22,055 nt of DNA from a virus. The stretch lies in IMG/VR virus record IMGVR_UViG_3300032085_000376, positions 1-22,055 of that record. The stretch is one strand, 5' to 3'. The notes under the pieces were generated by a model. The model did no database searches and was not told the DNA's origin. It saw nothing but the letters and a program-made list of their open reading frames with translations. Both the position numbers and the translations under genes were made by a program. How positions within the stretch are numbered: position 1 is the first letter of the stretch; each line of letters starts with the position of its first letter. This document shows, piece after piece, positions 7,451 to 22,055 of the stretch.

Positions 7451-8308
7451 TTAGGTAGTTACTTCCTCAACGTCAGGCGTCTTAACAACTTCAACCAACT
7501 CTCTTGTACCATTTGAGTACTTAAAAGTACGTATCCCTTTACCTTGGTTAGCATCAGACCAACACATACTCTTGTGTCTACAATAAACACAACCAACAGC
7601 AAGCTTAAGGTTACCAGACTTCCCATCAGGAACAGCAGCATAGCACTTAGAAGGTATGCTGCTTCCCTTAACAACTTCTTTAAGGTGCTTAATCCTGCTA
7701 CTAGCATTGACCATCTCCATAGAGTGTACTGGTGTTAAACAAATCTTACCAGTAGATTTATCTATAACAAGAAAGGCTGCTTCAGCTATACCATTGGCTT
7801 GAGCATAGGAAGATATCTGTGCCATGTATCCAAAGGGATCGTCGTCAGCTATTGTATTAGACTCAAACTTTTTAAAGCTGAATCCAGAAGCAGACTTACA
7901 ATCAACCAGAACCCCATCAATAACTGCATCCTGATGACCCAGTACTCCTTCTACTGTAACTTCTTTCTGTTGATCTTCTACTGTGTGACCTGCTATAGAT
8001 GCACAGAGTAGTAGAAGTTCTTCAAGAATATATCCATATAGAAATTTAATGCGTGTACTTGGTGGTAGTTTTTCTTCTGTCGTTTCTGTATTAACATCAT
8101 ACCATAATTGTCTATCAGGCTTTCCTATTGCAGACAGCCTAAGATTTCCATTGCTCCTTGGTTTGCTGTACATAAATTCTTTGATGTGAACCTTAAGCAT
8201 CTCACCAAAGTTATCTATGAGATCATCTACTTCTTTCTCATCACGCTCTATAGGTGTGAGATTAAATAACTCATAGATATCTTCTACTATTGTATTAATA
8301 TTTTTCAT
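7451..8308 (-). CDS. PD-(D/E)XK exonuclease, Cas4/RecB-like
   Basis: This 285-residue protein has the order of RecB/Cas4-type nuclease motifs: acidic helix near E96-E97, GHQDAV with D127, LVDCKSA with D136 and K138, and QISSYA with Q164. Together these would bind metal and cut DNA. Near the C-terminus are C222, C240, C243 and C249 (CVYCRHKSMCW), like the last part of an iron-sulfur cluster in Cas4/AddB. However, the N-terminal cysteine normally found in the S-x-x-x-x-C-x-R segment is replaced (SAIGKPDRQLWY), so cluster assembly must differ, perhaps using C222. In T7-like replication modules the exonuclease degrades host DNA and processes phage DNA ends. No Shine-Dalgarno sequence precedes ATG 8308; a strong hairpin ends 9 nt upstream. 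Confidence 0.85.
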   Translation of the reverse strand: MKNINTIVEDIYELFNLTPIERDEKEVDDLIDNFGEMLKVHIKEFMYSKPRSNGNLRLSAIGKPDRQLWYDVNTETTEEKLPPSTRIKFLYGYILEELLLLCASIAGHTVEDQQKEVTVEGVLGHQDAVIDGVLVDCKSASGFSFKKFESNTIADDDPFGYMAQISSYAQANGIAEAAFLVIDKSTGKICLTPVHSMEMVNASSRIKHLKEVVKGSSIPSKCYAAVPDGKSGNLKLAVGCVYCRHKSMCWSDANQGKGIRTFKYSNGTRELVEVVKTPDVEEVTT

Positions 8309-8317
8309 AATAAGAGA

Positions 8318-8354
8318 GGGGTGCTACACTAACCCTATAAAAATGTAGCACCCC
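8318..8354. repeat. Perfect 11-bp inverted repeat (hairpin) between SSB and exonuclease genes
   Basis: GGGGTGCTACA (8318-8328) and TGTAGCACCCC (8344-8354) pair perfectly around a 15-nt loop. In the leftward mRNA it lies 8 nt after the SSB stop and ends 9 nt before the exonuclease ATG, where a ribosome site would be expected. The bases after it (TCTCTTATT) are only a weak U-tract, so it may be a leaky terminator, an RNase III site or a translational control hairpin. Confidence 0.8.
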
Positions 8355-8362
8355 ATCCTCAC

Positions 8363-8854
8363 TTAGTTACCAAAGGGAATGTCGTCTGATTCAAGATCAG
8401 CCATTTGAGAGGCAGCGTCATTAACATAGCCACCTTCCACAACATCAAAGTCTTTATCCATAGCATACTCAATAAACTCAACTACTTGAACTGCTGCAAG
8501 ATCAGCAGACACACCCGCCTTACCTGCATAGTTCCACTCAAAGGGGAGTGCTTTTACTGTAACCACACTACCATTCCCAATAAGTTTATTATCCCAAGGA
8601 TTATTTTGGGAATCCACTACCGTAGGTGCTGAACGTGGACCGTTCTTACCCTGCACCTTACGTTTCAACGTGACAAATTCACCACGTTCATCTTCTTTGT
8701 TACGTACATTCAGACCTGCACCTTCTACTAAAGCTTTTGAATCTGCATCAAGACAGAGATCAACTTGCCAAGCAGGTTCAAACGTGCTGTTAGGCTCTAC
8801 GACAGAGGCCCAATAGCATTTACCAGTTAGATATAGAGGTTGAATTGGAGGCAT
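8363..8854 (-). CDS. ssb: Single-stranded DNA-binding protein (phage type)
   Basis: The product (163 residues from ATG 8854) looks like an OB-fold single-strand DNA-binding protein of the kind annotated as DUF2815-like in phages. It has an early aromatic strand (LTGKCYWASV), the segment FVTLKRKVQGKNGPRSAP before PTVVDS, a beta-rich core (GSVVTVKALPFEWNY), and an acidic C-terminal tail ending DIPFGN, the kind of tail SSBs use to bind partner proteins. The frame can be extended to 8938, but ATG 8854 has AAGGA 8 nt upstream and follows a strong promoter, so the longer form would lie in the leader. It sits between the polymerase/endonuclease genes and the exonuclease. Confidence 0.85.
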   Translation of the reverse strand: MPPIQPLYLTGKCYWASVVEPNSTFEPAWQVDLCLDADSKALVEGAGLNVRNKEDERGEFVTLKRKVQGKNGPRSAPTVVDSQNNPWDNKLIGNGSVVTVKALPFEWNYAGKAGVSADLAAVQVVEFIEYAMDKDFDVVEGGYVNDAASQMADLESDDIPFGN

Positions 8855-8876
8855 ATTAATTTTCCTTGTGTTTAGC

Positions 8877-8892
8877 GCCACACCATTGTGGC
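8877..8892. repeat. Short hairpin in the SSB leader
   Basis: GCCACA (8877-8882) and TGTGGC (8887-8892) form a perfect 6-bp stem around a CCAT loop. It lies in the predicted SSB leader, between the promoter and the ribosome site, and could be an operator or an RNA stability element. Confidence 0.6.
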
Positions 8893-8929
8893 TGTTGATA
8901 TTGTGTTTGTCTACTACTACAACTCCATC

Positions 8930-8958
8930 AGTATACACTACCTGATTTAGAGTGTCAA
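8930..8958 (-). promoter_or_regulatory. Strong sigma70-like promoter for the SSB gene
   Basis: On the minus strand TTGACA (8953-8958), a 17-nt spacer and TATACT (8930-8935) form a near-consensus promoter. The TGA inside the -35 box is the stop codon of the endonuclease VII-type HNH gene (8955-8957). The leader before ATG 8854 would be about 70 nt and contains the hairpin at 8877-8892. SSB is needed in large amounts, which fits a dedicated promoter. Confidence 0.75.
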
Positions 8959-15376: not shown

Positions 15377-16315
15377 TTATGCAGCCTCCAACTCTAACCA
15401 AGCAGGTGATACTAACATTTTCTTTACAGCATCTTCACGAAACACCCTTTTGTTGTGATCACCAGCCTTTTTAGCGGCGAGGTGGATGACGCTGGAGGTA
15501 TGAGTGGACCACCCAGTAGCAGCTTGATAGGCTGTCCATAGTGATCCCTTCATTTGTGTACCATACTTCTCATACAATCCCTTGCCATGTACGTGACGGT
15601 TCTCATTGTCAAAAGTTTTCATAAGATTAGATAGCACAACTTTATTTGGTACATTCTTACGCTTAATATTATTAATCTTCTTGGCTAATGTATTACTAAA
15701 TAATGATATAGCATCATCTCTACTAAGCTCAGTATTGTACCATCCCTTCATCTTTGTCAGCCCCTCACCAGAGACATACTCAGATGCTGCCCTGATCTTG
15801 GCACCAAATGACGTAACATTGAAGCCCTTGGTGTGCCTACCGTACACATAGGCCAGCTTATCACCACTGACTAAGGTGTTGAAACAGAATGTCCTGAAGA
15901 GGCCCATCATACCGTTGTTTGCCCATGTCCTGTTATGGCTGGTGCGGAAGACAAACTGTGGCACCACTGGACCTAATCCATCTATGTCCTTTGCATGGGC
16001 AGGGAACTTGGCAATCAACTCCATCCTTGCACCGCTGTCGTAGGTGTTGGTAGTAAATTCAGCATCAGTCAGGTCCAGCCCCGCTAGGTTGAGTGCCTCT
16101 TCGATCTGATCTACAATAGTAAGATACTGCGTAGGCTCATAGCTATCTGATACAATAGCCAGTGGCTCCATAGTATCTACACGACGCAGACCTACACCAA
16201 TGTCGTTTGGAATATCATAAATGCCCATACCTGCTGGACTGTGGGCTGGTATGTCTTGAGCTAGGGTAAATTTCTCTACTTGAAAGTTTAGTTTATCATG
16301 GTCAAACATATTCAT
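15377..16315 (-). CDS. DUF932 family (phage/plasmid-like) protein
   Basis: This 312-residue protein has the layout of DUF932 proteins, which are common in phages and plasmids and have no settled function: an N-terminal GIYDIPNDIGVGLRR segment, the central TIVDQIEEALNLAG, then FRTSHNRTWANNGMMGLFRTFCFN, and a helical C-terminal half with AYQAATGWSTH. Some relatives lie beside recombination or defence functions, but this does not give a role. The length is normal for the family. The start at ATG 16315 overlaps the stop of a 54-residue gene by 4 nt. Confidence 0.85.
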   Translation of the reverse strand: MNMFDHDKLNFQVEKFTLAQDIPAHSPAGMGIYDIPNDIGVGLRRVDTMEPLAIVSDSYEPTQYLTIVDQIEEALNLAGLDLTDAEFTTNTYDSGARMELIAKFPAHAKDIDGLGPVVPQFVFRTSHNRTWANNGMMGLFRTFCFNTLVSGDKLAYVYGRHTKGFNVTSFGAKIRAASEYVSGEGLTKMKGWYNTELSRDDAISLFSNTLAKKINNIKRKNVPNKVVLSNLMKTFDNENRHVHGKGLYEKYGTQMKGSLWTAYQAATGWSTHTSSVIHLAAKKAGDHNKRVFREDAVKKMLVSPAWLELEAA

Positions 16316-16476
16316 TCTCCTGTTTCTAGGGTAATAGGTGCATCATTGTCATGGAAGCATGTGAGTTTAAGTTTCTCTCCATCAGATGTTGTTACTTCTA
16401 CATTTATTATTCCAAATGTTTCCATGTCTGTTTTAGATATAACAATAGAACTTACGCTGTACATTGTACTTCTCAT
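16312..16476 (-). CDS. Hypothetical protein (54 aa)
   Basis: A 54-codon frame starts at ATG 16476 with AAGGA 8 nt upstream and ends in an ATGA overlap with the DUF932 gene. The product looks beta-rich (contains FGIINVEVTTSDGEKLKLTC) and is soluble. Hairpin copy A stands 27 nt before its ATG. The family is unknown. Confidence 0.65.
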   Translation of the reverse strand: MRSTMYSVSSIVISKTDMETFGIINVEVTTSDGEKLKLTCFHDNDAPITLETGE

Positions 16477-16503
16477 TGTATTCGTCCTTATATCTTCTAA
16501 TTA

Positions 16504-16542
16504 AAGTAACTTAGTATCGTAAGATACTCTACTAAGTAACTT
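16504..16542. repeat. Junction hairpin, copy A
   Basis: Left arm 16504-16516 and right arm 16530-16542 pair over 8 bp next to the loop (ending in TAGTA/TACTA), then one mismatch, then 4 bp. The 13-nt loop is TCGTAAGATACTC, identical to copy E. Its outer edge meets the stop codon of the 71-residue gene (16541-16543). The loop side can also fold as AGTATC-GTAA-GATACT. Confidence 0.8.
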
Positions 16543-16756
16543 AAATTAGTAGTAATTCCTCAGTTGTTTTAAGCTGGCTCATGGCTATATCAAAAGCTGT
16601 ATCTGGGCCTAGCTCATACCTTGTTGCTGTTAAAATAAAAGGTCGTTCTTCATTATCTACATACGTACTTACTGACCTTAAAGTTTTTTTATTCCACATG
16701 ATTTTAATTTCATGTCCTCTTATTTCTTTTTCTACAAAAGTTATTCTATCAGTCAT
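16541..16756 (-). CDS. Hypothetical protein (71 aa)
   Basis: A small protein (begins MTDRITFVEKEIRGHEIKIM, ends KTTEELLLI), probably alpha/beta. Its ATG overlaps the preceding zinc-finger gene's stop by 4 nt. Its stop forms the edge of hairpin copy A. The family is unknown. Confidence 0.65.
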   Translation of the reverse strand: MTDRITFVEKEIRGHEIKIMWNKKTLRSVSTYVDNEERPFILTATRYELGPDTAFDIAMSQLKTTEELLLI

Positions 16757-16965
16757 CGGTCATCTCCATCTTTCAGTGTTATACTAATAGTATTGAAGAA
16801 ATCATCTTCAACTTCTTCAACTGTATCATAATGATAGTTGGATTCATACCACTGTACTTCACCTACACCCTCACATTCATTGCACATATCAGGTTTTGTA
16901 GTATACCCATATAATTCACCTTGTCCAGCACAATATTCACATTCTTGAACAATAACCCACGTCAT
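16753..16965 (-). CDS. Zinc-ribbon protein with two CxxCxGxG-type motifs
   Basis: Two DnaJ-like zinc motifs are clear: CEYCAGQGE (C9, C12) and CNECEGVGE (C28, C31), with 15 residues between. One zinc ion would be held by the four cysteines. The C-terminal half is acidic. Such small zinc proteins in phages may act as chaperone-like or nucleic-acid-binding factors; the role here is not known. The ATG at 16965 has a good ribosome site (AGAGAGG). Confidence 0.75.
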   Translation of the reverse strand: MTWVIVQECEYCAGQGELYGYTTKPDMCNECEGVGEVQWYESNYHYDTVEEVEDDFFNTISITLKDGDDR

Positions 16966-16983
16966 CTTATTACCTCTCTTTCC

Positions 16984-17295
16984 TTATCTTAGTGCTGCAA
17001 TTAATCTAGCCTTAACCTTTTGTTTGTATGGTACTCTCTCAATCTTTTCATTGAAAGCCAATGACTTATCATAATAATTATTTATTCTTTGAGGATAAAC
17101 ATATTCTCTATTGTTTGGTATACACATACCAGCCCTTTTCTTAATACCTATTACAGCATTCTTTGTAAGTAAAGTTTTTAATTTACCCCTACATAATCTA
17201 TTGGCTTCAACTGCTACTTGATTTGCAGTCAAATTCTTTTTAAAAAGATCCAGAACTATTTGTTTTGTCTCTTGTTTGTGCGGTACTATAAACAT
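16984..17295 (-). CDS. GcrA-like helix-turn-helix protein
   Basis: Residues about 12-60 resemble the N-terminal DNA-binding part of GcrA, the alphaproteobacterial cell-cycle regulator that recruits sigma70 polymerase: a leading helix (VLDLFKKNLTANQVAVE) and the segment LTKNAVIGIKKRAGM (43-57), close to the GcrA TRNAVIG(K)xxRLG signature. The rest is basic and differs from GcrA. At 103 residues it is shorter than typical GcrA, whose C-terminal polymerase-binding domain is not seen. It could redirect host transcription or simply bind DNA. The match is by eye and a different HTH family is possible. Confidence 0.55.
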   Translation of the reverse strand: MFIVPHKQETKQIVLDLFKKNLTANQVAVEANRLCRGKLKTLLTKNAVIGIKKRAGMCIPNNREYVYPQRINNYYDKSLAFNEKIERVPYKQKVKARLIAALR

Positions 17296-17310
17296 TATCC
17301 AACTCTTTCA

Positions 17311-17916
17311 CTATACAGTCTCATTGTTTAAATCTCCCATTAAGTACGTTACATGGCAACGTGATACATGCTCACCATCATCATATCTTTTAGGATATAA
17401 GTCAGCAATAAAATTGCACCAGCTATCCCATAGGTATTCACAGCCACCTAAATCTTCTAATGTTTTCAAGCACAACTCAGCTTTTCTTAAAGCTGTATCA
17501 TAGCCTAGTTTCTTTGGTAGTTTGAATGTATTAGGTGAAAGTCCAAATCTTTTTAAGTTGTGAACGTCTAAACATCCAGCCTCACCTATACATAGTTGTA
17601 ATATAAATCCAGCTTTAGGTAAACCTATACCATCAATAGCGGCTACATTTAATAGTTTAACTGCTAAAGGCATGGTCTTATCGTGGATAGTTTTATACAG
17701 TTCAGCCTTATGCTTAGTAGCATATGTTATGGTATCAGCCTTACTACCCCAAGCGTATTTACTTTCAATACCTTCACTTTTCATAGAGTTAAATACAGTA
17801 GGCACTGTGTAAAATCTTTGTTGAATAGTAGAAGATACAAACAGTATCACCTCTCGTGTATGGTCAGGACTTTGCAAAGCAAAGGCTGCTATTCTTTTTT
17901 GATGGTTGCCAAACAT
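17311..17916 (-). CDS. Helix-hairpin-helix, DNA-glycosylase-like protein
   Basis: In this 201-residue protein the segment from about 88 to 125 reads like the HhH-GPD core of DNA glycosylases: DGIGLPKAGFILQLC (HhH hairpin with K101) and then CLDVHNLKRFGL, where D117 is in the place of the catalytic aspartate in the family's D-x-H-x-x-R pattern. The whole is shorter than MutY or Nth, and no iron-sulfur cysteine cluster is visible. Base excision of modified or damaged DNA is possible, but a non-enzymatic DNA-binding role is equally open. It has a good ribosome site (AAAGGAA), placed just after hairpin copy B. Confidence 0.6.
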   Translation of the reverse strand: MFGNHQKRIAAFALQSPDHTREVILFVSSTIQQRFYTVPTVFNSMKSEGIESKYAWGSKADTITYATKHKAELYKTIHDKTMPLAVKLLNVAAIDGIGLPKAGFILQLCIGEAGCLDVHNLKRFGLSPNTFKLPKKLGYDTALRKAELCLKTLEDLGGCEYLWDSWCNFIADLYPKRYDDGEHVSRCHVTYLMGDLNNETV

Positions 17917-17937
17917 ATTCTAATTCCTTTAATTAAC

Positions 17938-17971
17938 GCCCCGTAGTATCGTAAAAACTCTACTACGGGGC
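17938..17971. repeat. Junction hairpin, copy B
   Basis: Arms GCCCCGTAGTA (17938-17948) and TACTACGGGGC (17961-17971) pair perfectly over 11 bp around a 12-nt loop (TCGTAAAAACTC). Flanking TTAATTAA sequences (17929-17936 and 17975-17982) could extend the stem. In the leftward mRNA it begins 7 nt after the stop of the 62-residue gene and ends 21 nt before the ATG at 17916. Confidence 0.9.
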
Positions 17972-17978
17972 TTATTAA

Positions 17979-18167
17979 TTAACTTTTAATACTAAACACT
18001 GGGTTAGCTGTCTCACCAAACCTGTTAGCATTAAAAACTTTCATGTATAGGCTACGCTTTCTGAAGTGAATGCCTAAGAAACTTTTCCCAAGGCTAAAGC
18101 CATACCTGTTTTGTACTAGACGTGCCTTAGTTGATTTACCTAGTCCGGTTTTGTTAATAAGTTGCAT
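17979..18167 (-). CDS. Hypothetical basic protein (62 aa)
   Basis: A strongly basic protein (begins MQLINKTGLGKSTKARLVQN; contains FRKRSLYMKVF). Its ATG shares a base with the stop of the 70-residue gene (TAATG), so both are translated together. No family is recognised. Confidence 0.65.
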   Translation of the reverse strand: MQLINKTGLGKSTKARLVQNRYGFSLGKSFLGIHFRKRSLYMKVFNANRFGETANPVFSIKS

Positions 18168-18379
18168 TAGTTTGCCCTCTGTGATGTTGCGGTGCCTTCA
18201 GGTAAGGCATCAGCGTTCTTAATGACTTTGAAAAACTCGTTACCGTTCTTTGCCAAGCCACGTATTCTGATAGCGTTGCCAGCCTCTACAGCAGCCTTGA
18301 ATAGGCTGTTATCACCCTTTTCCTTTTGTTTTATTTCTACCCATTTCTTATCTTGGTAAACGTCAAATGCTTTAGACAT
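18167..18379 (-). CDS. Hypothetical protein (70 aa)
   Basis: A soluble basic protein (begins MSKAFDVYQDKKWVEIKQK; contains AIRIRGLAKNGNEFFKVIKN). The ATG has a good ribosome site (AAAGAGG). It follows a leader with two hairpins (18404-18422 and copy C). The family is unknown. Confidence 0.65.
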   Translation of the reverse strand: MSKAFDVYQDKKWVEIKQKEKGDNSLFKAAVEAGNAIRIRGLAKNGNEFFKVIKNADALPEGTATSQRAN

Positions 18380-18403
18380 GTGTAACCTCTTTGGTCGTTG
18401 TAT

Positions 18404-18422
18404 GCTGCTACACCCTAGCAGC
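18404..18422. repeat. Perfect 7-bp hairpin in the leader of the 70-aa gene
   Basis: GCTGCTA (18404-18410) and TAGCAGC (18416-18422) pair around a 5-nt loop (CACCC). It lies 24 nt upstream of ATG 18379 and 30 nt downstream, in mRNA sense, of junction hairpin copy C. It does not share that family's motifs and has no U-tract. Confidence 0.7.
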
Positions 18423-18452
18423 GTGGGCTAGATAATTCATACCTAATAGATA

Positions 18453-18483
18453 CCCTTTAGTATCACTATGTTCTACTAAAGGG
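18453..18483. repeat. Junction hairpin, copy C
   Basis: CCCTTTAGTA (18453-18462) and TACTAAAGGG (18474-18483) pair perfectly over 10 bp around the 11-nt loop TCACTATGTTC, the same loop as copy D. It lies between the 72-residue and 70-residue genes, 25 nt after the stop of the first. Confidence 0.9.
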
Positions 18484-18508
18484 CATCAATTAGCCATCAA
18501 TTTTATTC

Positions 18509-18727
18509 TCATGTTATCCAATCCAATGCGCCATTGAGATACTGATTCATCTCTTTACCTGACATGCGTGGTGTTGCATGGTGTGAACCTTTATAGTTTA
18601 CCAAACAATAACCTCCATAGCATTCAGCATAATCTAAATTCACATAAGAAGATTCATGCAACTTCAACTTAGCATTAAGTTGATCTAATTTAGCCTGTAA
18701 AGTTTTCTTTGTGATACGATTAGTCAT
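18509..18727 (-). CDS. Hypothetical protein (72 aa)
   Basis: A small protein whose N-terminal helix (KKTLQAKLDQLNAKLKL) is followed by a compact segment with AECYGGYCLVNYKGSHH and a C-terminal helix with MSGKEMNQYLNGALDWI. This layout (helix, GGY strand, helix) occurs in small phage hypothetical proteins. AAGGA precedes ATG 18727. The role is unknown. Confidence 0.65.
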   Translation of the reverse strand: MTNRITKKTLQAKLDQLNAKLKLHESSYVNLDYAECYGGYCLVNYKGSHHATPRMSGKEMNQYLNGALDWIT

Positions 18728-18731
18728 GTTA

Positions 18732-18923
18732 TTATCCTTTGTAAGATGTAATGTAGTCTAGGCAAGCTATGCAAGCTGTTATGATAACAGCACCTATAAC
18801 AATAAGCAATGTTGATATATAAATATCAAAGGGCAATAGAATGCCGCTGACTATTAAGAATAGTGCTACTAACATTCCGAATACCGTAACTGCTAATAGA
18901 ATAGTATTTCTAACAAGTGTCAT
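18732..18923 (-). CDS. Small membrane protein, two membrane spans (63 aa)
   Basis: Two hydrophobic segments at about residues 7-30 and 35-55 with a short turn between suggest a helical hairpin in the inner membrane. The tail (DYITSYKG) is polar. It is not in a lysis position and lacks holin features that I could point to, though a small phage membrane protein of this kind could be one. AAAGG precedes ATG 18923, right after junction hairpin copy D. Confidence 0.65.
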   Translation of the reverse strand: MTLVRNTILLAVTVFGMLVALFLIVSGILLPFDIYISTLLIVIGAVIITACIACLDYITSYKG

Positions 18924-18946
18924 GTCAATTACCTTTCTTAATTAAC

Positions 18947-18979
18947 GCCCTGTAGTATCACTATGTTCTACTACAGGGC
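18947..18979. repeat. Junction hairpin, copy D
   Basis: GCCCTGTAGTA (18947-18957) and TACTACAGGGC (18969-18979) pair perfectly over 11 bp around the loop TCACTATGTTC. Compared with copy B one base pair differs on both arms (C-G becomes T-A), a compensating change. It lies 6 nt after the stop of the 57-residue gene and 23 nt before ATG 18923. Confidence 0.9.
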
Positions 18980-18985
18980 TAATAA

Positions 18986-19159
18986 TTAACTTCCAAAAAC
19001 CTGATATCTTACTTCGTCGCAATCGTCATGAGTTGACACGTAAAAACCTTTTTGGGTGTACAAGTCAACTCCAGTTCCTCCTGTGGAGGGATAAGCAATC
19101 AGCCCATCAGTTGCCATATCAAGCTCTGCTTGGAGGTAGGTTATGTCGTTGATCTTCAT
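18986..19159 (-). CDS. Hypothetical protein, first gene of the leftward operon (57 aa)
   Basis: A 57-codon frame from ATG 19159 (CGGAG, about 8 nt upstream) to TAA 18986. The product begins MKINDITYLQAELDMATDG and contains GGTGVDLYTQKGFYVS; it is acidic and soluble. It is the last leftward gene before the divergent region, so it is probably the first transcribed. Copy E lies in its leader and copy D follows its stop. The family is unknown. Confidence 0.65.
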   Translation of the reverse strand: MKINDITYLQAELDMATDGLIAYPSTGGTGVDLYTQKGFYVSTHDDCDEVRYQVFGS

Positions 19160-19205
19160 GGTAAAACTCCGTTGGTTGAGGTTGGTAGTTATAATCTAAT
19201 TAATC

Positions 19206-19236
19206 TCTTTAGTATCGTAAGATACTCTACTAAAGA
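19206..19236. repeat. Junction hairpin, copy E
   Basis: TCTTTAGTA (19206-19214) and TACTAAAGA (19228-19236) pair over 9 bp around the loop TCGTAAGATACTC, identical to copy A. AT-rich flanks with ATTAAT on both sides resemble the other copies. It lies in the leader of the 57-residue gene. Confidence 0.8.
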
Positions 19237-19378
19237 TATTAATTAGTATATCGTCTCTGCTTTGTCAAGCCTCTCGTCAAAATGCTTTGCATTTCGTCAC
19301 GGCACCTTTGGTGCTTGACATGGTGCAATGTGTTGGATTGTGTAACAATCACAACGACTTAGCATGGTTTGCCAAGAG

Positions 19379-19435
19379 TTTACGTAGTAAGCCAATCTGC
19401 CATACCATCCCTCTTCGGGATGATTTACGTAGTAA
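19379..19435. repeat. Direct repeat TTTACGTAGTAA, two copies
   Basis: The 12-mer occurs at 19379-19390 and 19424-19435, 45 bp apart, and includes the partly palindromic TTAC-GTA-GTAA. Between the copies is the hairpin CATCCC-TCTTC-GGGATG (19406-19422). A protein-binding site (iteron-like or operator) is possible. Confidence 0.6.
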
Positions 19436-19474
19436 CTGTGACAAATTTGCAACAGTTTGGCTGAAGTTTCCTTA

Positions 19475-19525
19475 CTAACTCTTTGTAAAGTCTTCGTAAG
19501 AACTTAGACTTTACTACAGAGTTAG
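19475..19525. repeat. Long compound hairpin, probable distant relative (copy F) of the junction hairpins
   Basis: CTAACTCT (19475-19482) pairs with AGAGTTAG (19518-19525), and inside it TAAAGTCT (19486-19493) pairs with AGACTTTA (19506-19513), with a small TTG/CTAC internal loop. The 12-nt end loop TCGTAAGAACTT shares TCGTAAGA with the loops of copies A and E, which is why I group it with them. Confidence 0.75.
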
Positions 19526-19529
19526 ATAG

Positions 19530-19785: not shown

Positions 19786-21330
19786 ATGGAGTTACTAGAG
19801 AATACTAATGAGTACCTACAACCCTACATTAACTTAAAGGGACTGTTAGATACTAAGATAGAACAAGACTGTAAAGATGATTTCCTGACATTCGTCAAAG
19901 TCATGGCACCTATGATGGTGTCTGACTGGAAGATGGGTCGTCATATTGAAGTTATATCAAATAAATTAAAAGATTTAGAGAATGGTAAGATAAAACGACT
20001 GATGGTCTTTCTTCCACCACGGTCTTCTAAGTCTGTTATCTGCTCTAAGCTCTTCCCAGCTTGGTATATTGGTAGAAATCCTGCACATGAGATACTGACT
20101 GTCTCCCATAGTGACCAATTGTCCAGTGATTTTGGTAGGTCTGTCCGTGATGTGGTGGGTACTGAAGAGTTTGAGAAGATATTTAAAGGAGTCTCTTTAA
20201 GAAGCGACGTCAGAGCTGCTGGTAAGTGGAAGACAAACCACAATGGGTCTTACTATGCAGCTGGTGTGCGTTCACAGATAGCTGGACGTGGTGCTCACAT
20301 AGCTATACTGGATGATGTGATGTCTGAAGAGGACGCCATTAGTGCTTCAGGCAGGAGATACATCAAGGAATGGTATCCAGCGGGGCTTAGAACCCGCATC
20401 ATGCCCAATGGGGCTATAGTAATTATTAATACACGCTACCACTATGATGATCTCTGTGGTTGGTTGTTAAAACAACAAGAGAATATGGGAGAGTTTGAAA
20501 CAATCCCATGGGAAGTAATTAGAATACCTGCATGGGTTGACGAAGAAGCAGCAGAATTGCTTGACTTACCTGTAGGCTCTAGTTACTTTCCCGAATGGAA
20601 GTCCGATGAAGTCTTACGCATGGATGAGAGTGAGATCAAAGCCTCCAATGGCAGTAGATACTGGAATGCTCTCTACATGCAAGACCCCACACCTGAAGAG
20701 GGTGGTATTATTAAGAAGAAATGGTTGAAATACTGGGATGATGAAGAACCACCTAGCTGTGATTTTATAATTCAAACATATGATACTGCTTTCTCTACAC
20801 GGACTACAGCTGACTACAGTGTTATCCAGACATGGGGTATATTCTCCATGTATAACCAAGATGATAATGGTTTAGAAGACTTAACCCCTAACTTAATCTT
20901 GCTAGGGAACATTAGAGGTAGGTTTGAGTACCCAGAACTAAGAAGGATTACTCAGAAACTGTATGATGAGCATAGACCAGATGTGTGTATGGTTGAGAAG
21001 AAAGCCAGTGGACAGTCTTTGTTACAGGATATGCGTAGGAGTGGTCTCCCTGTAATGGAGTACACACCAGACAGGGATAAGGTATCCAGAGTGTACTCAG
21101 CTTCTCCAATCATTGAGGCTGGTAGAATGTGGATACCAAGTAAAAAGAAGTGGTCAGATGAATTAGTAGAGGAATTACTTAGGTTCCCCAATGCTGCTCA
21201 CGATGACCAAGTAGATGCAATGACAATGGCTATCCACTACATGAAAGAGTCTTGGCATCTAACACATCCAGATGATCCAGACCTTGAAGACTCACCACCA
21301 ACTAAAAAGAAAACTTACTGGTCTTTCTAA
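19786..21330 (+). CDS. terL: Terminase large subunit
   Basis: TerL packages DNA into proheads. The ATPase domain has a variant Walker A (LPPRSSKSV, K82), Walker B HIAILDD (D176, D177) and the coupling motif IVIINTRYHYDD. The C-terminal RNase H-like nuclease has the three acidic positions D333 (TYDTAFS), E404 (MVEKKASG) and D474 (HDDQVDAM). The 514-residue length is normal for the family. It starts the rightward operon and faces the replication genes across the divergent region. A separate small-terminase gene is not visible beside it. The start at ATG 19786 is supported by a -10 box 7 nt upstream, but there is no Shine-Dalgarno sequence. Confidence 0.95.
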   Translation: MELLENTNEYLQPYINLKGLLDTKIEQDCKDDFLTFVKVMAPMMVSDWKMGRHIEVISNKLKDLENGKIKRLMVFLPPRSSKSVICSKLFPAWYIGRNPAHEILTVSHSDQLSSDFGRSVRDVVGTEEFEKIFKGVSLRSDVRAAGKWKTNHNGSYYAAGVRSQIAGRGAHIAILDDVMSEEDAISASGRRYIKEWYPAGLRTRIMPNGAIVIINTRYHYDDLCGWLLKQQENMGEFETIPWEVIRIPAWVDEEAAELLDLPVGSSYFPEWKSDEVLRMDESEIKASNGSRYWNALYMQDPTPEEGGIIKKKWLKYWDDEEPPSCDFIIQTYDTAFSTRTTADYSVIQTWGIFSMYNQDDNGLEDLTPNLILLGNIRGRFEYPELRRITQKLYDEHRPDVCMVEKKASGQSLLQDMRRSGLPVMEYTPDRDKVSRVYSASPIIEAGRMWIPSKKKWSDELVEELLRFPNAAHDDQVDAMTMAIHYMKESWHLTHPDDPDLEDSPPTKKKTYWSF

Positions 21331-21388: not shown

Positions 21389-21793
21389 ATGGTAAGTGAA
21401 TTAGAAAAAGTATTGCTTATATTATCATTGTCTAACAGACATGAGAATTGGAATGTGAAAGATATACAGAGATTGGTTATACCGCCACTAAAATTAAACC
21501 AATACAGAATATATATAGATGAAGAAGTTCCGCTGTGTTATGCAAGCTGGGCAATGTTTCCAAAAGAAGCTGACGAAGGTTATAAAAATAAAACCAGAAA
21601 GATTCAACCAAAAGACTGGGATAGTGGGAATAACCTTTGGCTGGTAGATGTGATATGTCCTTTTGGAGGTACACGTAGTGCAATTAAAAGATTAGACACT
21701 TTAAGAAAAGAACTGGGATTACCAGATAAAGTAAATTTTTATAGAGGCAAACGGTTGGGGAGCAATAGAGTAAATAATGTTACACGAATTTAA
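21389..21793 (+). CDS. Toxin-activating lysine acyltransferase family protein (HlyC-like)
   Basis: The product (134 residues) aligns with E. coli HlyC, which uses acyl-ACP to acylate lysines of the RTX toxin HlyA. Matching blocks are SNRHENW (HlyC SPLHRNW) with the catalytic histidine at H18, LNQYRIY, PLCYASWAMF (HlyC PVAYCSWANL), and KDWDSGNNLWLVDVICPFGG with the catalytic aspartate at D87 (HlyC D92). Both catalytic residues are therefore kept. It is shorter than HlyC (170) at the C-terminus. No RTX toxin is in view; the neighbours are TerL and a Gly/Thr-repeat protein, so a phage structural protein is the likely substrate, by inference. The ATG follows a -10 box with no ribosome site. Confidence 0.85.
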   Translation: MVSELEKVLLILSLSNRHENWNVKDIQRLVIPPLKLNQYRIYIDEEVPLCYASWAMFPKEADEGYKNKTRKIQPKDWDSGNNLWLVDVICPFGGTRSAIKRLDTLRKELGLPDKVNFYRGKRLGSNRVNNVTRI

Positions 21794-22055
21794 AAGACCA
21801 ATGTGGAATGACGGTTACTCTAAGGAGCAGCCTTGGCTTAACTATTTTAATAGCTACGAACGTACGCACTGTTGCTTTGAGGGTGATCCTGAGGGTGATG
21901 AGAGTGGTGGTGATGATGACATCACGAGTGGTGGCACTGGAACTAGCACTGGAACTGGCACTGGCACTGGAACTGGCACTGGCACTGGTAGTGGCACTGG
22001 TAGTGGCACTGGTGTTGGTACAGGTAGTGGCACTGGTGTTGAGGACGAAATAGTA
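21777..22055 (+). CDS. Protein with a Gly-Thr/Ser repeat tract (partial, runs off the right edge)
   Basis: A frame from ATG 21777 stays open for 93 codons to the window end. It overlaps the HlyC-like gene's end by 17 nt, with GGAG about 14 nt upstream. The N-terminal 35 residues are ordinary (MLHEFKRPMWNDGYSKEQPW, NYFNSYERTHCC). An acidic linker (EGDPEGDESGGDDD) follows, then a GT/GS dipeptide tract that ends VEDEIV. The rest is not visible, so the function is unknown. Gly-rich flexible tracts occur in phage structural proteins, and it could be the acyltransferase's substrate or partner, but that is speculation. Confidence 0.75.
   Translation, partial: MLHEFKRPMWNDGYSKEQPWLNYFNSYERTHCCFEGDPEGDESGGDDDITSGGTGTSTGTGTGTGTGTGTGSGTGSGTGVGTGSGTGVEDEIV
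21937..22041 (+). repeat. Tandem hexamer-type repeat encoding Gly-Thr/Ser
   Basis: Units of the form GGCACTGGAACT or GGTAGTGGCACT are repeated for about 100 bases and translate to repeated GT and GS. The repeated third-base variants show divergence between units. Such a tract may change length by slippage. Confidence 0.8.

What the first reader, a model, noticed from the sequence alone, without database searches (positions are those of the whole stretch)
16504..19236. Family of five gene-junction hairpins with compensating stem changes
Copies A-E share inner arms TAGTA/TACTA, one of two related loop types and mostly AT-rich flanks (TTAATTAA in B). The outer stem bases differ from copy to copy but stay paired: B and D differ at one position on both arms (C-G versus T-A), and D and C differ at another (G-C versus T-A). 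This covariation points to selection on RNA or cruciform structure. Copies A-D lie between a stop and the next start on the minus strand, and E lies in the leader of the first gene. They have no U-tract, so they are not classic terminators. They recall, in position only, the start-associated inverted repeats of mycobacteriophage cluster K. They may be RNase III sites, mRNA stabilisers, operators or mobile hairpins.
Basis: partly seen in the sequence, partly recalled or inferred. Interest (0 to 1): 0.85.

Follow-up and report, generated by a model that had tools for sequence, protein, structure and literature searches.

The report
Repeated RNA hairpins between phage genes
A group of uncultured phages carries repeated RNA hairpins of one shared design in the gaps between early genes; they probably help to cut or separate one long message into smaller ones, but what reads them is not known.

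Summary
The pattern occurs 5 times against 0.03 expected. Relatives in IMG/VR carry more: 20 groups of loci have two or more copies, all on one strand within each group.

In mRNA sense the design is: a stem of about 20 bp whose sequence varies and covaries (108 double-changed cells against 34.9 in shuffles), often a mismatch near bp 11, a tandem GA/GA internal loop (131 hairpins, next class 19), a 2-3 bp cap and a small loop. Copies stand near the preceding stop codon and about 20 nt before a start codon. In six long genomes they occur only in, or in the leader of, the operon opposite terL. Orthologous junctions differ in having them. No Rfam family matches.

Best reading: an undescribed structured mRNA element that works like the RNase III sites of T7 early mRNA. 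That it is an RNA element is well supported (about 0.85); RNase III as its reader is inferred (0.4). A strand-neutral G-U test was inconclusive, so a DNA-level role is not excluded.

The parts
16496..16550 (-). Hairpin A, between ORFs 16541-16756 and 16312-16476 (it overlaps the end of the upstream ORF)
   Evidence: covariance model 69.4 bits, E 8.5e-14, minus strand; a training sequence; z -4.6
17928..17983 (-). Hairpin B, between ORFs 17979-18167 and 17311-17916
   Evidence: model 46.2 bits, E 7.5e-8, not in training; z -7.0
18442..18494 (-). Hairpin C, between ORFs 18509-18727 and 18167-18379
   Evidence: model 43.8 bits, E 3.2e-7, not in training; z -7.2
18938..18989 (-). Hairpin D, between ORFs 18986-19159 and 18732-18923
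   Evidence: model 34.5 bits, E 7.8e-5, not in training; z -7.3
19194..19248 (-). Hairpin E, in the leader of the first leftward ORF (18986-19159)
   Evidence: model 66.2 bits, E 5.6e-13; a training sequence; z -5.6
19473..19526 (-).
   Evidence: perfect 9 bp upper stem; fold, z -5.7; below the model's reporting limit

Best explanation
These are copies of one structured mRNA element of the leftward (early/replication) operon in a phage clade. Shown by sequence: a variable, covarying stem of about 20 bp, often with a mismatch or small internal loop in its middle; a tandem GA/GA loop; a 2-3 bp cap; placement just before a Shine-Dalgarno and start codon; one orientation per genome; restriction to that operon in the long genomes examined; presence and absence between orthologous junctions. 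Inferred: a polycistronic transcript is made (probably by host RNA polymerase), each hairpin folds into about two turns of duplex, and host RNase III or a similar double-strand enzyme cuts near the central mismatch. That would release shorter messages, each with a new 5' end just upstream of a ribosome site and a protective 3' hairpin, as at the R sites of T7 early mRNA. The GA/GA cap would fix the apical end or bind a helper.
For: Covariation along upper and lower stem. Stem length 19-20 bp in 65 of 134. T7 junctions folded here show two stems of roughly 9-10 bp around a central internal loop at early gene junctions. Site placement: 144 of 175 sites have SD and start downstream in mRNA sense, median 20.5 nt from the stem. 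In six long genomes 34 of 34 model hits (E up to 0.1) lie in or in the leader of the operon opposite terL. No T7-type RNA polymerase in 6 genomes (T7 rings as control) and no phage-borne RNase III of family PF14622 in 9, so the host would supply both.
Against: No transcript or cleavage data. RNase III is not known to need a conserved GA/GA cap (recalled). F apart, the central feature is a single mismatch, or none, not an asymmetric internal loop as in the T7 folds. Close relatives lack the element: G002 (terL 95% identical) and G005 have no model match. The wobble test is inconclusive. The host is unknown.
Confidence: 0.4

Rival explanations
1. The hairpin is a protein-binding site: a phage or host protein recognises the tandem GA/GA and capped loop at each junction and controls translation, antitermination or decay. 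The stem only presents the cap.
For: GA/GA is the commonest loop-end class by far, 131 against 19, while cap pairs switch (GU/AC, AC/GU, UU/AA) and stems vary.
Against: No candidate binder identified. A stem of fixed length of about 20 bp is more than a cap display needs. Relatives have other hairpins in such junctions without GA/GA.
Confidence: 0.3
2. The hairpin acts without being cut: it insulates neighbouring genes (ends translational coupling, shields the ribosome site) or blocks 3' exonucleases.
For: In L145 the hairpin and an SD stand between the upstream gene and primase, where four of four orthologs shown have stop and start touching or overlapping. Stop codons often fall at the base of the stem, median -3.
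Against: Insulation does not require the GA/GA cap or a constant stem length. The upstream-stop rule also fires on the opposite strand (113 against 147 of 175).
Confidence: 0.2
3. It acts as DNA: a cruciform or single-strand hairpin (operator, replication signal) or a small mobile palindrome that copies itself between junctions.
For: 63 of 101 query proteins have orthologs both with and without a family hairpin upstream. Variable stem positions are more alike within a locus (0.54) than between loci (0.39), 0 of 500 permutations. The wobble test does not separate RNA from DNA. Tandem GA also stacks in DNA (recalled).
Against: Flanks are inverted and covary, not target-site duplications. Long genomes show it only in one operon, in the sense of its genes, before SD sequences. 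No transposase search was made.
Confidence: 0.1

Closest known systems
RNase III processing sites of phage T7 early mRNA (R0.3, R0.5, R1, R1.1, R1.3; site names and places recalled, T7 record does not annotate them)
   Same: Hairpins at early gene junctions upstream of start codons, two stems around a central irregularity (folded here); repeated with family resemblance within one operon. R1.1 RNA is cut at a single bond (passages of PMC4858673).
   Different: T7 folds show an asymmetric internal loop and no GA/GA cap; T7 encodes its own RNA polymerase, these phages show none of that family. The covariance model finds no match in the first 8 kb of T7.
Extended start-associated sequences (ESAS) of cluster K mycobacteriophages
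   Same: 17 bp imperfect inverted repeats with 4-13 bp spacer just upstream of starts of a subset of non-structural genes, mostly one orientation, function unknown (PMC3203893, passages and section 15 part 1).
   Different: ESAS carry a sequence consensus per genome and a 13 bp SAS; here stem sequence varies with compensation, the GA/GA cap is conserved and no SAS-like 13-mer was looked for.
Correia / NEMIS elements of Neisseria
   Same: Small inverted-repeat elements near genes that can bind RNase III and be cleaved or protected by it (start of the abstract of PMC2649163 in a search listing).
   Different: Described as mobilised elements with promoter and IHF functions in a bacterial chromosome; here phage, confined to one operon, with a GA/GA cap.

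Membership tests
T7-type early RNase III site | cleaved by RNase III | not testable with these tools
   needs enzyme or RNA-seq
T7-type early RNase III site | intercistronic hairpin of about two helical turns in the early operon | tested here: met
   stem 19-20 bp in 65 of 134; 34 of 34 model hits in six genomes in or in the leader of the operon; T7 folds for comparison
T7-type early RNase III site | sequence antideterminant rules at proximal and distal boxes | not tested
   rules seen as a passage of PMC4357697; no scoring script was run and the host enzyme is unknown
cluster K ESAS | repeat arms built on one sequence consensus per genome, next to a 13 bp SAS | tested here: not met
   stems differ within a genome: identity at the five variable positions 0.54 within loci, with compensated changes; SAS not searched for
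intrinsic terminator | U tract directly after the stem | tested here: not met
   stems A-E are followed by no U tract in the sequence; scan made no call there (loop limit 3-8)
N4-type virion RNA polymerase promoter hairpin | phage encodes a giant virion RNA polymerase | tested here: inconclusive
   three large ORFs of three genomes show no polymerase match in PHROGs; not every ORF was scanned
described Rfam family | covariance-model match | tested here: not met
   no match at the hairpins with E up to 1 in the window; 0 at gathering in 8 hairpin-rich loci

The most novel reading that the evidence does not exclude
A new class of portable gene-junction RNA cassette: a hairpin with a tandem GA/GA cap, together with its ribosome site, spreads through the early operons of a phage clade. 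Its stem is rewritten while staying paired, and one dedicated reader, phage or host, recognises the cap to set the processing or translation of each early gene.
Probability: 0.3. Interest if true: 0.78.

Novelty: new variant of a known kind. Interest (0 to 1): 0.6.

Why it matters
It is a clean, testable case of a many-copy structured RNA in the early operon of uncultured phages, in which stem, cap and position are under visibly different constraints. If RNase III reads it, T7-style segmentation of early messages also occurs in phages without a T7-type polymerase. If a protein reads the cap, an unknown RNA regulator probably sits among the small orphan early genes or in the host. The covariance model also marks early-gene junctions in otherwise unannotated phages.

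Tried and rejected
N4-type promoter hairpins were suggested by C-GTAA-G mini-hairpins on the + strand. Weakened: three large ORFs of three genomes show no polymerase match, the stem is long, and the conserved GA/GA cap is on the other (mRNA) strand. T7-type polymerase PF00940: none in 9 genomes (no control rang), none in 6 with T7 itself ringing. Phage-borne RNase III PF14622: none in 9 (rings in 8 of 14 control genomes).

An alternative inner fold (the loop-proximal copy pairing with the 3' arm) is preferred by 1 of 63 representatives.

G-U against A-C as proof of RNA: 29:2 at first, but most of it lies at one junction position where A-G is also common. With that position excluded it is 18:10, p = 0.18 on 70 nonredundant sites, and 24:18, p = 0.44 on all 117. 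I do not use it as support.

Host genomes: an exact 23-mer had 0 matches in genome contigs. Isolated phages: blastn of hairpin E had a best E of 0.5; in the first 50 kb of HTVC027P the best model match has E 2.9, in that of 023Pt_psg01 none up to E 10.

Seven of the 15 hits of the C/D pattern have no outer stem. One search dropped four loci (L049, L137, L369, L268) as non-family and collapsed the rest at 90% core identity to 63. The site rule is loose (stem of 8 or more with GA/GA ends or CTTACG): 15 of its 35 groups have a single site, and some of those are chance, so I count only the 20 groups with two or more. The naive gene calls are noisy (116 of 134 intergenic; 22 of 116 downstream genes called on the other strand); one search replaced them.

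Not done: RNase III antideterminant scoring, R-scape, a tree-aware covariation test, a transposase search.

Literature: searches listed no paper whose title or abstract start describes this element; most listed papers were not opened. Apart from Rfam, the claim of novelty rests on that.

Full report
OBSERVATION. The window is a phage fragment: a leftward operon with a primase-helicase and DNA polymerase A, and rightward terL at 19786. A 55,065-base IMG/VR contig (handle G001) encodes its DUF932 and terL proteins at 100% identity and has the hairpins. The five hairpins are present as described and exceed chance. A sixth, F, was missed.

FAMILY. An exact pattern for the A/E type (21 fixed bases plus a gap of 1-3) has matches in 55 stretches of viral contigs. 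Over all fetched loci the anchor CTTACG in a stem scoring 8 or more occurs 134 times; five control hexamers occur 2-5 times each. A census without a sequence rule (stem of 9 or more, loop 7-16, low-complexity arms removed, T7 left out, only exact duplicates merged) lists 1018 strand-wise hairpins. Loop ends are GA/GA in 131; TC/TC, also 131, is the same set read on the other strand; the next class has 19. A looser rule counts GA..GA 117 times against 7-42 for seven other dinucleotides, AA highest. Loci with sites form 35 groups by shared 31-mers; 20 have two or more sites in their best locus, and in 20 of 20 these are on one strand. Of 57 pattern loci, 48 encode a homolog of at least one of 11 window proteins; seven of the nine others are chance hits without a stem.

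STRUCTURE. For 20 ungapped copies (A and E among them) with the named structure, 87.1% of cells pair against 68.6% in shuffles, 108 cells are changed on both sides against 34.9 +/- 5.0, and the covariation score is 0.528 against 0.162 +/- 0.020 (0 of 500 shuffles for each); slid partners score 0.06-0.16. Pairs with a double change are 17 against 13.8 (8 of 500), further pair types 37 against 35.0 (149 of 500, not exceptional). Seven innermost and cap pairs never vary there and say nothing. The sequences are related, so these are not probabilities. At the primase junction L151 and L157 (89% protein identity) have stems that differ by three compensated pair changes (read). A covariance model from the 20 finds B, C and D, which were not in training, at E 7.5e-8, 3.2e-7 and 7.8e-5, always higher on the minus strand. 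RNAfold forms the outer stem in 62 of 63 representatives.

PLACE. An SD plus a start with at least 35 open codons lies downstream on the mRNA strand in 144 of 175 sites, median 20.5 nt from the stem, against 13 of 175 on the other strand. The upstream-stop rule does not discriminate (147 against 113). In six long genomes with strand runs (G001, G003, G010, G011, G012, G014), 34 of 34 model hits with E up to 0.1 (5, 5, 8, 6, 5, 5; better strand counted) lie in the operon opposite terL or in the stretch before its first called gene. G013 has 6 more. G002 and G005 have none; G002 has five other hairpins in that operon or its leader.

EVOLUTION. Of 137 distinct downstream proteins, 101 have orthologs below 97% identity, and 63 of these have orthologs both with and without a family hairpin upstream. 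Junctions total 356 with, 673 without and 101 with another hairpin; loci overlap, and some 'other' ones are family variants, such as L157. In L145 a hairpin and SD stand before primase, where four orthologs shown have stop and start touching or overlapping. Copies within a locus are more alike than between loci (0.54 against 0.39), which suggests local duplication or conversion.

MECHANISM. Shown: a structured element with mRNA-sense polarity at early junctions. Inferred: transcription through it, folding in vivo, and its reader. RNase III is preferred because stem length, central mismatch and placement resemble T7 R sites as folded here and the enzyme is widespread (recalled; PF14622 rings in 8 of 14 control genomes). 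The conserved cap is the main argument for a binding protein. A DNA-level role is disfavoured, not excluded.

NOVELTY. No Rfam match, and no description found in the searches named under Tried and rejected. I rate it a new variant of a known kind: intercistronic hairpins of phage early operons.

Noticed in passing
window 8318-8354; G002 18415-18450: Another junction hairpin, GGGGTGCTACA..TGTAGCACCCC, between ORFs 8363-8938 and 7451-8308; in G002 the same junction hairpin reads GGGGTGCTGCA..TGCAGCACCCC, one compensated pair change.
   Followed up: no
L218 7250-7297, L210 3677-3722, L230 8070-8106: Relatives without the GA/GA family carry other long junction hairpins (stems of 11-17 bp) with different loops.
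   Followed up: partly
L317 and L308, upstream of the ortholog of the gene behind hairpin D in L128: These junctions keep a TTAATTAA stretch before the SD but have no hairpin, as if half of the lower stem were left behind.
   Followed up: no
window 19380-19460: The leader between E and F holds a palindrome (19434-19457) and two copies of TTTACGTAGTAA.
   Followed up: no
window 21777-22055: ORF ending in a long Gly-Thr/Ser dipeptide repeat that runs off the contig.
   Followed up: no
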